From positions 313,527-377,526 of the forward strand of contig NZ_CP045687.1 in assembly GCF_009601705.1 (NCBI RefSeq): 64,000 nt of DNA, written 5' to 3'. The notes under the pieces are model-generated. The model did not search any database, was not told the DNA's origin, and saw only the letters and a list, made by a program, of their open reading frames with translations. The DNA is from Sulfolobus sp. E5-1-F (lineage in GTDB: Archaea > Thermoproteota > Thermoprotei_A > Sulfolobales > Sulfolobaceae). How positions within the stretch are numbered: position 1 is the first letter of the stretch; every line of letters begins with the position of its first letter. The position numbers and the translations under genes were made by a program. Below, in pieces: positions 38,606 through 51,108 of the stretch.

Positions 38606-38778
38606 ATCAAACACCTACATTAATATATTAACCCAAGGTTTATAAACTTTAATTATAGTCTAACTTAATATTGTTATCATTCCATCACACATAATAATAC
38701 TGTCCTAAATTACTAGAAAGCTTTCATAAAGAAGTACCAATTAAAATAATAATGATATTCCTCCTATTTAAGGTTAGC

Positions 38779-38827
38779 GTGATGAATAACTCCAATCCTG
38801 ATTAATGATGTAGTAACTCGCGACTGA
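38779..38827 (+). ncRNA. C/D box sRNA (2'-O-methylation guide)
   Basis: All boxes and spacings fit archaeal C/D RNAs: C GTGATGA (38779-38785), 12-nt guide (38786-38797), perfect D' CTGA (38798-38801), 3-nt spacer, C' ATGATGT (38805-38811), 12-nt guide (38812-38823), perfect D CTGA (38824-38827). It lies in the 258-base gap between divergent genes. By the N-plus-five rule the D guide would methylate a G in UCGCGAGUUACU and the D' guide a G in GAUUGGAGUUAU; I could not place either target in rRNA or tRNA. Confidence 0.75.
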
Positions 38828-38863
38828 ATCACATTTATACCCATTTTTTATATTGGAAAGTAT

Positions 38864-50008: not shown

Positions 50009-50548
50009 GTGAATATCGTAGTTAATGTGAAACAGTACTTAATGGTTATTGCTGGCGTGTTAGTAAGCTTAGCAATTGCGTCTTTAGTAGTTTATGTCTC
50101 TCATATGTTTATAACATATAGTATAAAAGAGCCTAATATTGTAGAGCGACAGTCTGGCTATGCCCCACAAATGTATGAGTTAACTGTGAATGCAAGACCA
50201 GCCAATGGAAGCTATATGAATTCCTACCTTATATATTCTCCTCTCCAATCTTCTTTAGTAATTAACAAGGATCCAGTATTTCACGTTTACCCAAGTATAA
50301 TAAATTTGGGTCCATTTAATAATTCAGCTATAATAACTATTTATTACTCTCCTCACGATAGAGTAAATATAGCTGTAACTCAAGAAACGTTTAATGTTAG
50401 TGTGATTAATACTACTGTTATTGATGATCAAATTGTAGCAACTCAAGTGGAAATTACGTTCTATAACGCGTCTCCAAATACGATATATTTGATTCCAATA
50501 TGGAACCAATATAATGTCACGTATTATGTTCTAATATATTATGAATAA
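50009..50548 (+). CDS. Membrane-anchored extracellular protein, 179 aa
   Basis: One N-terminal membrane helix (YLMVIAGVLVSLAIASLVVYV) is followed by a Thr/Asn/Tyr-rich beta domain with several N-glycosylation-type sites (NGS, NNS, NVS, NTT, NAS, NVT). It is probably an S-layer-associated or secreted surface protein. A TATA-like ATATATATA at 49993-50001 would start transcription near 50022-50028, so GTG 50027 (seven codons in, MKQYLMV) is the likelier start than GTG 50009. Confidence 0.6.
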   Translation: MNIVVNVKQYLMVIAGVLVSLAIASLVVYVSHMFITYSIKEPNIVERQSGYAPQMYELTVNARPANGSYMNSYLIYSPLQSSLVINKDPVFHVYPSIINLGPFNNSAIITIYYSPHDRVNIAVTQETFNVSVINTTVIDDQIVATQVEITFYNASPNTIYLIPIWNQYNVTYYVLIYYE

Positions 50549-50549
50549 G

Positions 50550-50599
50550 TCAGTCTATCGACCCTTCTTCACTAGTCTAGACGATGTAGGCGTCATCAT
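50550..50599 (-). ncRNA. C/D box sRNA directly downstream of an H/ACA hairpin
   Basis: On the minus strand the order is C ATGATGA (50599-50593), 12-nt guide (50592-50581), D'-like CTAG (50580-50577), 4-nt spacer, C' GTGAAGA (50572-50566), 12-nt guide (50565-50554), perfect D CTGA (50553-50550). Two 12-nt guides and a perfect C and D box match archaeal C/D RNAs. Predicted targets are ACGAUGUAGGCG and UCUAUCGACCCU. It abuts the preceding hairpin: the C box shares bases with its ACA. Confidence 0.65.
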
Positions 50600-50668
50600 G
50601 TGCCCCGTTCGGCTGAGGGCCTTCACTCATTTTATAACTTCTCGTCGGGCCCAGATAGGGAACGGGGC
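50599..50668 (-). ncRNA. H/ACA box sRNA candidate (pseudouridylation guide)
   Basis: On the minus strand, GCCCCGTTC (50668-50660) and GAACGGGGC (50610-50602) form a perfect 9-bp lower stem with ACA (50601-50599) straight after it. Above lies an internal loop (CCTATCT on the left, TCAGCC on the right), then GGGCC/GGCCC as upper stem and an A-rich apical region with GA steps suited to a K-turn or K-loop. This is the archaeal H/ACA plan. The pocket would accept a target like GGCUGA-UN-AGAUAGG. It overlaps the last 37 bases of the gene at 50632. Confidence 0.55.
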
Positions 50669-51108
50669 TTTCTCAATCTTTTATATAATCTATACAAGAA
50701 TATAACAATTACTATCTGACCTATATCTAGTTGCAATGTAGCAGCATGATTATAAATTATTTCAACAAGAAAAGGTAGCATTTGTATGTGTGGTCTCCAT
50801 ACATACCATATGAGGTAATAATTAAGATAGTTTAGAAATACAAAACTTATAGCAGATGCATCAATGATCATATTGTAATAATCATTTTTATAACCCGAAA
50901 CCAATAAAATAGATATTATAAATATAATTAGTGCTATAAATGCAGAAAATGATACTCCTACTGGAATCGTGAGATTATATGTTACTCCACTACTTGCTCT
51001 ATATACAAGCGGTTCATCTATTGGAACTAAGGGAGCCATGGAGAGTAATATTATTGTTAATATTATTGATCCTACTAGTACCCAAACATAATACTCAGAA
51101 TTTTTCAT
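50632..51108 (-). CDS. Four-helix membrane protein, 158 aa
   Basis: Four hydrophobic helices (about 8-27, 50-70, 80-102, 118-140) are joined by short loops; the tail is basic (YKRLRKPRSL). No family recognised. The last 12 codons run into the H/ACA-like hairpin, so either the true end is shared with the RNA gene or the RNA is processed from this gene's transcript. Confidence 0.6.
   Translation of the reverse strand: MKNSEYYVWVLVGSIILTIILLSMAPLVPIDEPLVYRASSGVTYNLTIPVGVSFSAFIALIIFIISILLVSGYKNDYYNMIIDASAISFVFLNYLNYYLIWYVWRPHIQMLPFLVEIIYNHAATLQLDIGQIVIVIFLYRLYKRLRKPRSLSGPDEKL

What the first reader, a model, noticed from the sequence alone, without database searches (positions are those of the whole stretch)
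50550..50668. H/ACA-type hairpin fused head-to-tail to a C/D box sRNA
On the minus strand a 9-bp stem hairpin with the H/ACA plan ends in ACA at 50601-50599, and the C box of a well-formed C/D sRNA begins at 50599. The two guides would share sequence, so they are unlikely to be two separate mature RNAs unless trimmed. A single transcript carrying both a pseudouridylation-type and a 2'-O-methylation-type guide resembles eukaryotic chimeric scaRNAs. Such chimeras are not standard in archaea, to my knowledge. The hairpin also overlaps the 3' end of the upstream protein gene.
Basis: partly seen in the sequence, partly recalled or inferred. Interest (0 to 1): 0.78.

Follow-up and report, generated by a model that had tools for sequence, protein, structure and literature searches.

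The report
Two RNA guides fused in one transcript
In Sulfolobaceae, a family of heat-loving archaea, the gene for an RNA that directs one kind of chemical modification (on a tRNA) sits end to end with the gene for an RNA that directs another kind (on the ribosome), and this tight pairing is present in all 30 genomes checked but the earliest-branching one, so the two are probably made as one transcript.

Summary
On the minus strand, window 50668-50599 is a complete archaeal H/ACA hairpin. It is followed, sharing one base (the last A of ACA), by a complete C/D box sRNA at 50599-50550. The stems covary in 30 genomes. The H/ACA pocket matches the own tRNA-Tyr(GUA) anticodon plus intron exactly (11 bp around U35) and changes in step with that intron across genera (0 of 100,000 permutations as good). 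It is therefore the known pre-tRNA-Tyr Psi35 guide of Sulfolobales, not a new guide. The C/D guides match two sites 25 nt apart in 23S rRNA. The apparently new point is the linkage: in 29 of 30 Sulfolobaceae genomes that have both guides, they abut on one strand (ACA to C box -1 to +6 nt), while neighbouring genes have changed on both sides. The exception is the earliest branch of the family; elsewhere in the order the guides lie apart. There is no room for a separate C/D promoter, so one primary transcript is likely. Whether the mature product is one ~120-nt RNA or two trimmed RNAs cannot be told from sequence; I favour a processed dicistron. I found no earlier report of the linkage in the papers I could read.

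The parts
50599..50668 (-). H/ACA guide RNA hairpin, 70 nt: pre-tRNA-Tyr U35 pseudouridylation guide
   Evidence: Sequence; covariation; target match in own tRNA-Tyr gene
50660..50668 (-). lower stem, 5' strand GCCCCGUUC (pairs with 50610-50602)
   Evidence: 98% of cells paired, 4 pairs with changes on both sides
50654..50659 (-). 5' guide element CCUAUC, pairs with GAUAGG (tRNA-Tyr 37 and intron)
   Evidence: Exact match in L015; covaries with the intron across genera
50617..50652 (-). upper stem GGGCC/GGCCC with k-turn or k-loop (GA at 50646-50645, UGA at 50625-50623)
   Evidence: Invariant columns G23 A24 and U44 G45 A46 in the 10 aligned sequences
50611..50615 (-). 3' guide element CAGCC, pairs with GGCUG just before U35
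50602..50610 (-). lower stem, 3' strand GAACGGGGC
50599..50601 (-). ACA box, 14 nt below the pocket; its last A is also the first base of the C box
   Evidence: invariant in the 10 aligned sequences
50550..50599 (-). C/D box sRNA, 50 nt
   Evidence: C, D', C', D boxes in order; model matches in 141 of 197 genomes of the order (some of them weak)
50593..50599 (-). C box AUGAUGA
50581..50592 (-). D' guide CGCCUACAUCGU; 23S target UCGAUGUCGGCU with one internal mismatch
50577..50580 (-). D' box, degenerate CUAG (CUGA in g7 and in some outgroups)
50566..50572 (-). C' box GUGAAGA
50554..50565 (-). D guide AGGGUCGAUAGA; 8-bp core to 23S CCCAUCGACCCC
50550..50553 (-). D box CUGA
   Evidence: invariant
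50632..51108 (-). upstream ORF (158 aa, membrane-protein-like, no Pfam or NCBIfam match) whose 3' end lies inside the hairpin
50009..50548 (+). convergent ORF (179 aa, no family) ending 2 nt from the D box

Best explanation
This is a two-guide transcription unit. SHOWN by comparison: the first half is the H/ACA guide for U35 of pre-tRNA-Tyr(GUA), which reads the 5' exon and the intron and so would act before splicing. The second half is a C/D guide aimed at two nearby 23S sites (predicted 2'-O-methylation at the U of CCCA[U]CGACC and of GA[U]GUCGG). The two abut (-1 to +6 nt) in all sampled Sulfolobaceae except the earliest branch, which dates the join to after that branch split off. INFERRED: both are transcribed as one RNA from signals upstream of the hairpin. 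Cbf5/L7Ae/Nop10/Gar1 assemble on the hairpin and L7Ae/Nop5/fibrillarin on the C/D part. Nucleases trim the exposed ends, and cleavage at the junction yields two mature RNAs. In this genus the shared A means one precursor can hardly give both complete RNAs, so each precursor would become one or the other, or would stay joined.
For: Target: the predicted target GGCTGTAGATAGG was derived from the pocket before the search; it occurs exactly in the tRNA-Tyr gene. Guide and intron change together over 10 genera (score 51.5; permutation mean 41.4, best 50.5; 0/100,000). Stems covary. 23S matches: both 8-mer cores occur once in the 23S locus, 25 nt apart; 2 of 3000 shuffled guide pairs do as well. Linkage: 29 of 30 Sulfolobaceae genomes, with upstream and downstream genes changing independently. 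G011, unlinked, branches first within the family (support 96/99). TATA-like sites score better before the hairpin than before the C box (mean 8.3 v 4.7). Trimming and polycistronic origin are the described route for archaeal C/D sRNAs (PMC7994747).
Against: No transcript data could be read here. The TATA-like sites are mostly no better than shuffled AT-rich sequence, and in several genomes they lie at an unsuitable distance. In g4 and g7 the 5' guide does not fit tRNA-Tyr 37-42 but a stretch 5 nt further on. The tightness of the junction could also mean that the RNA is not cut.
Confidence: 0.6

Rival explanations
1. A stable bifunctional chimera: the ~120-nt RNA is not cut and carries an H/ACA RNP and a C/D RNP side by side, coupling pre-tRNA-Tyr pseudouridylation with 23S methylation.
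For: The junction stays within -1 to +6 nt over ten genera while the distance to the downstream gene varies by about 40 nt and the upstream stop codon shifts by about 100 nt. In the window's genus the boxes share a base in four genomes.
Against: The targets belong to unrelated RNAs (tRNA-Tyr, 23S), so no benefit of coupling is evident. The last A of ACA and the first base of the C box would be needed by two different RNPs. In the S. acidocaldarius study (PMC5539422) the main text counts H/ACA and C/D sRNAs as separate classes, though its tables were not readable here.
Confidence: 0.27
2. Two independent genes that merely happen to be adjacent, each with its own promoter, kept together by inertia and compact genomes.
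For: Both guides stand alone in other families and in G011. G011's lone C/D gene has a TATA-like run just upstream.
Against: The place of any C/D promoter is the GC-rich, base-paired hairpin in all linked genomes; best TATA-like score there 4.7 v 8.3. The join outlived rearrangements on both sides.
Confidence: 0.1
3. Chance structure or decayed pseudogene on one side, mainly the D' half of the C/D sRNA.
For: In this genus D' is CUAG and its guide has a mismatch to 23S.
Against: Covariation, guide-target coevolution, and conserved C, C', D boxes and D guide.
Confidence: 0.03

Closest known systems
Sulfolobales H/ACA sRNA for Psi35 of pre-tRNA-Tyr (Muller et al. 2009, NAR 37:1308; named Sso1 in PMC4652768)
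   Same: Same target position, same lineage, single hairpin; the 9-bp lower stem and 5-nt 3' pocket strand agree with the '10/5/9' fold quoted for Sso1.
   Different: The accessible papers describe it as an H/ACA RNA alone; none mentions a C/D sRNA joined to its 3' end. The 2009 paper itself was not available.
Archaeal C/D box sRNAs of Sulfolobus (Omer 2000; Dennis 2015, PMC4644070)
   Same: C, D', C', D boxes, short guides, rRNA targets, neighbourhood of a protein gene's 3' end.
   Different: Its 5' end abuts an H/ACA RNA; it matches no Rfam family above cut-off.
Dicistronic tRNA-C/D sRNA precursors (N. equitans, PMC3491384; other archaea, PMC7994747)
   Same: C/D sRNA directly behind another structured RNA, so that one cut could make both ends.
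   Different: The partner is an H/ACA RNA, not a tRNA; no RNase Z site is expected.
Eukaryotic composite C/D-H/ACA scaRNAs such as U85 (PMC4041459)
   Same: One transcript carrying both guide types.
   Different: U85 has C/D and H/ACA domains in one mature RNA with CAB boxes and Cajal-body localisation; as I recall, its H/ACA domain lies inside the C/D domain. Here the units are head to tail, with a single H/ACA hairpin.
Mixed snoRNA polycistrons of trypanosomes and plants (own knowledge)
   Same: C/D and H/ACA RNAs from one precursor.
   Different: There the genes are separated by spacers; here the spacer is -1 to 6 nt.

Membership tests
Archaeal H/ACA guide RNA | Hairpin with internal pocket, ACA (ANA) 14-16 nt below the pocket | tested here: met
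   14 nt from pocket top to ACA; stems covary
Archaeal H/ACA guide RNA | k-turn or k-loop for L7Ae in the upper stem | tested here: met
   GA and UGA invariant in the 10 aligned sequences; protein binding not tested
Archaeal H/ACA guide RNA | Both pocket strands pair with a target around a U | tested here: met
   11 bp with pre-tRNA-Tyr around U35
Sso1-type pre-tRNA-Tyr Psi35 guide | Guide complementary to U35 region of intron-containing tRNA-Tyr(GUA) | tested here: met
   15 of 17 tabulated genomes pair in place; g4 and g7 only with a 5-nt shift
Sso1-type pre-tRNA-Tyr Psi35 guide | Pseudouridylation activity | not testable with these tools
   Reported for S. solfataricus in the literature; not tested here
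Archaeal C/D box sRNA | C, D', C', D boxes with short guides | tested here: met
   D' is degenerate in this genus
Archaeal C/D box sRNA | Guide complementary to rRNA or tRNA with N+5 target | tested here: met
   D 8-9 bp, D' 8-9 bp in most genera, to 23S
Composite C/D-H/ACA RNA | Both guides in one mature RNA | not testable with these tools
   Needs northern blot or RNA-seq
Composite scaRNA (U85-like) | CAB box and Cajal-body localisation | not tested
   Archaea have no Cajal bodies; family membership is not claimed
Dicistronic sRNA precursor | One primary transcript | tested here: inconclusive
   No room for an internal promoter, but no transcript data

The most novel reading that the evidence does not exclude
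A stable archaeal chimeric guide RNA, kept across nearly all Sulfolobaceae, in which one RNA carries an H/ACA and a C/D particle that share nucleotides at the junction. Assembly of one particle could compete with or couple to the other, linking tRNA-Tyr pseudouridylation to 23S methylation.
Probability: 0.25. Interest if true: 0.8.

Novelty: new variant of a known kind. Interest (0 to 1): 0.56.

Why it matters
Composite C/D-H/ACA RNAs are known to me only from eukaryotes. Here the join can be placed on a tree: both guides exist apart in other families and in the earliest Sulfolobaceae branch, then join once and are never seen lost. This gives a natural test of how archaeal guide RNAs live without promoters of their own, how two sRNPs mature from overlapping ends, and whether chimeric guide RNAs can arise outside eukaryotes.

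Tried and rejected
Single-sequence folding was only weakly informative (z -1.87). Rfam: no family above cut-off; weak sR1 and sR9 similarity is the shared C/D box pattern. A TATA-box scan upstream of the hairpin gave no firm promoter. A fluoride riboswitch match at 50580-50630 (14.8 bits against a cut-off of 34) was rejected as chance. A pattern scan of all genome contigs for the junction found five Sulfolobaceae/Sulfolobales contigs and two bacterial matches (Betaproteobacteria, Chitinophaga) that I take as chance and did not examine. Own 16S rRNA was not found by the family search, so only 23S was scanned for C/D targets. A first pair count used a structure misplaced by one column at one pair; one search replaces it. 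Muller et al. 2009 and supplementary tables of RNA-seq papers could not be read.

Full report
OBSERVATION. The minus strand of the window carries, from 50668 to 50599, a hairpin with a 9-bp lower stem (GCCCCGUUC/GAACGGGGC), an internal pocket (CCUAUC on the 5' side, CAGCC on the 3' side), an upper stem (GGGCC/GGCCC), k-turn bases (GA, UGA) and ACA 14 nt below the pocket. The base at 50599, the last A of ACA, is also the first base of a C box AUGAUGA. A full C/D sRNA follows to 50550: D' guide, D' CUAG, C' GUGAAGA, D guide, D CUGA. The upstream ORF ends inside the hairpin and a convergent ORF ends 2 nt beyond the D box. Folding of this one sequence is only moderately better than shuffled sequence, so I turned to relatives.

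CONSERVATION. A DNA search of 41 genomes found the same region in all seven members of the genus and in further genera of the family. In 11 aligned sequences the two stems pair in 97.6% of cells with 23 double-change cells, reached by none of 500 shuffles, and the signal collapses when the partner is slid by one column. I built one model of the hairpin and one of the C/D sRNA and searched 197 genomes of the order. In the family (f1) 30 genomes have both, counting G017 and G024, whose hairpins appeared only in the more permissive search. In 29 of the 30 the two abut on the same strand, with -1 (4 genomes), 0 (6), 1 (7), 2 (3), 3 (3), 4 (5) or 6 (1) nt between ACA and the C box. With the 30 hairpins aligned to the model, 10 of 15 pairs show changes on both sides (this alignment leans towards its structure).

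EXCEPTION AND TIMING. In G011 the hairpin is on 545876-545933 (-) and the C/D sRNA on 1120324-1120372 (+). A maximum-likelihood tree of RpoB places G011 as sister to the other 18 Sulfolobaceae sampled (support 96/99). In G011 the hairpin follows the same membrane-protein gene as in the window. In other families the two guides were found on different contigs or far apart, for example about 15 kb in G131 and about 170 kb in G062, and none of the outgroup C/D loci examined had the hairpin within the flanks searched, up to 1.5 kb. The simplest history is that the C/D gene came to lie directly behind the H/ACA gene after G011 split off and has stayed there since.

TARGET OF THE H/ACA HALF. Pairing rules for the pocket predict the target GGCUG-U-A-GAUAGG. 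A search of the own genome finds this exact word twice. One of the two is the anticodon and intron of the tRNA-Tyr gene, with the target U at position 35. tRNA-Tyr genes were then fetched from the relatives. Among 17 genomes tabulated, 15 guides fit their own intron with at most one mismatch in the 5' element, although the introns differ: GATAGG, GGTAGG, GATAAG, GATTGG, GATGGG, GGTGAG, GGTGGA, GATGGA. Over one genome per genus the summed score is 51.5 against a permutation mean of 41.4, and no permutation in 100,000 reaches it. The guide reads intron sequence, so it would act before splicing. This is the guide described for Sulfolobales by Muller et al. 2009, as cited in two papers I could read; that paper itself was not available. 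In g4 and g7 the 5' element instead fits GGAGGG five bases further into the intron, which I cannot explain.

TARGET OF THE C/D HALF. In the own 23S locus the cores AUCGACCC and AUGUCGGC occur once each, 25 nt apart. The D and D' guides of the family fit them with 8-9 bp in most genera. With the usual N+5 rule both target a uridine (CCCA[U]CGACC and GA[U]GUCGG). Of 3000 shuffled guide pairs 2 matched this closely. In the window's genus the D' box and D' guide have drifted.

CONTEXT. The gene before the hairpin is the same small membrane-like protein in seven genera and different or absent in others. The gene behind the C/D sRNA is, in seven genera, a protein that starts with a CKKCKL...VPGEG motif (which I recognise as a family 4 uracil-DNA glycosylase; not checked by a family search) and otherwise something else. 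The two sets of genera differ, so the join is not a passive part of one long conserved block. Its spacing varies by 7 nt, less than either outer spacing.

MECHANISM. Shown by sequence: two complete guides, their targets, and conserved contact. Inferred: one transcript, because a promoter for the C/D sRNA would have to lie in the GC-rich hairpin, where TATA-like scores are low (4.7 against 8.3 before the hairpin). The upstream TATA-like sites are themselves mostly not significant against shuffles. Published work on archaeal C/D sRNAs reports that most lack their own promoter, many overlap the 3' end of a gene, dicistrons including tRNA-C/D fusions exist, and protein protection plus end trimming is the proposed route of maturation (PMC7994747; tRNA-C/D dicistrons in PMC3491384). 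I therefore favour a dicistronic precursor that is trimmed into two RNPs. In the window's genus the shared A implies that one precursor can hardly yield both RNAs complete. An uncut chimera remains possible and would be the more striking result.

NOVELTY. Each half is a known kind. Searches of the open literature on archaeal guide RNAs, including the S. acidocaldarius L7Ae study (PMC5539422), the 2025 S. acidocaldarius atlas (PMC12817955) and the archaeal C/D review, showed no mention of an H/ACA-C/D join. Supplementary tables and subscription papers were out of reach, so absence of an earlier report is not certain.

NAMES. Contig lengths tie G023 to Metallosphaera yellowstonensis MK1, G099 to M. 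javensis AS-7, G016 to Sulfolobales archaeon Acd1, G024 to Sulfolobus sp. UBA167 and G007 to Sulfolobaceae archaeon CF.Pisc.bin.25. From memory only, the lengths of G020 and G009 equal those of S. acidocaldarius DSM 639 and S. tokodaii 7, and the window's genus would be Saccharolobus.

Noticed in passing
window 38775-38829 (+): A C/D box sRNA of Rfam family sR9 (40.4 bits, above the cut-off).
   Followed up: no
L090, L093, L094, L095, L098, L099 (g7, g4): The 5' guide UCCUCC does not fit tRNA-Tyr 37-42 but fits GGAGGG 5 nt further into the intron in both genera (checked in G020 and G009); a looped-out target or another target.
   Followed up: partly
window 50577-50592 and genus g1 loci L083-L089: D' box is CUAG or CUUG and the D' guide has a mismatch to 23S, while other genera keep the fit; the D' function may be decaying in this genus.
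   Followed up: partly
L094, L095, L097, L102 downstream of the C/D sRNA: The start codon of the downstream gene overlaps the D box (CUGAUG), so guide RNA and mRNA leader share sequence.
   Followed up: no
L111:1501-1562: G013 has GCA where the others have ACA at the end of the H/ACA hairpin.
   Followed up: no
L185, L186 (G013): The rpoB domain is split over two overlapping reading frames in G013, possibly a split gene or a frameshift error.
   Followed up: no
L150 (G062) and L075 (G033), another family of the order: A stand-alone H/ACA hairpin: the guide CCUCAC of G062 fits the tRNA-Tyr intron GUGAGG of its congener G033, so the tRNA-Tyr guide seems older than the join.
   Followed up: partly
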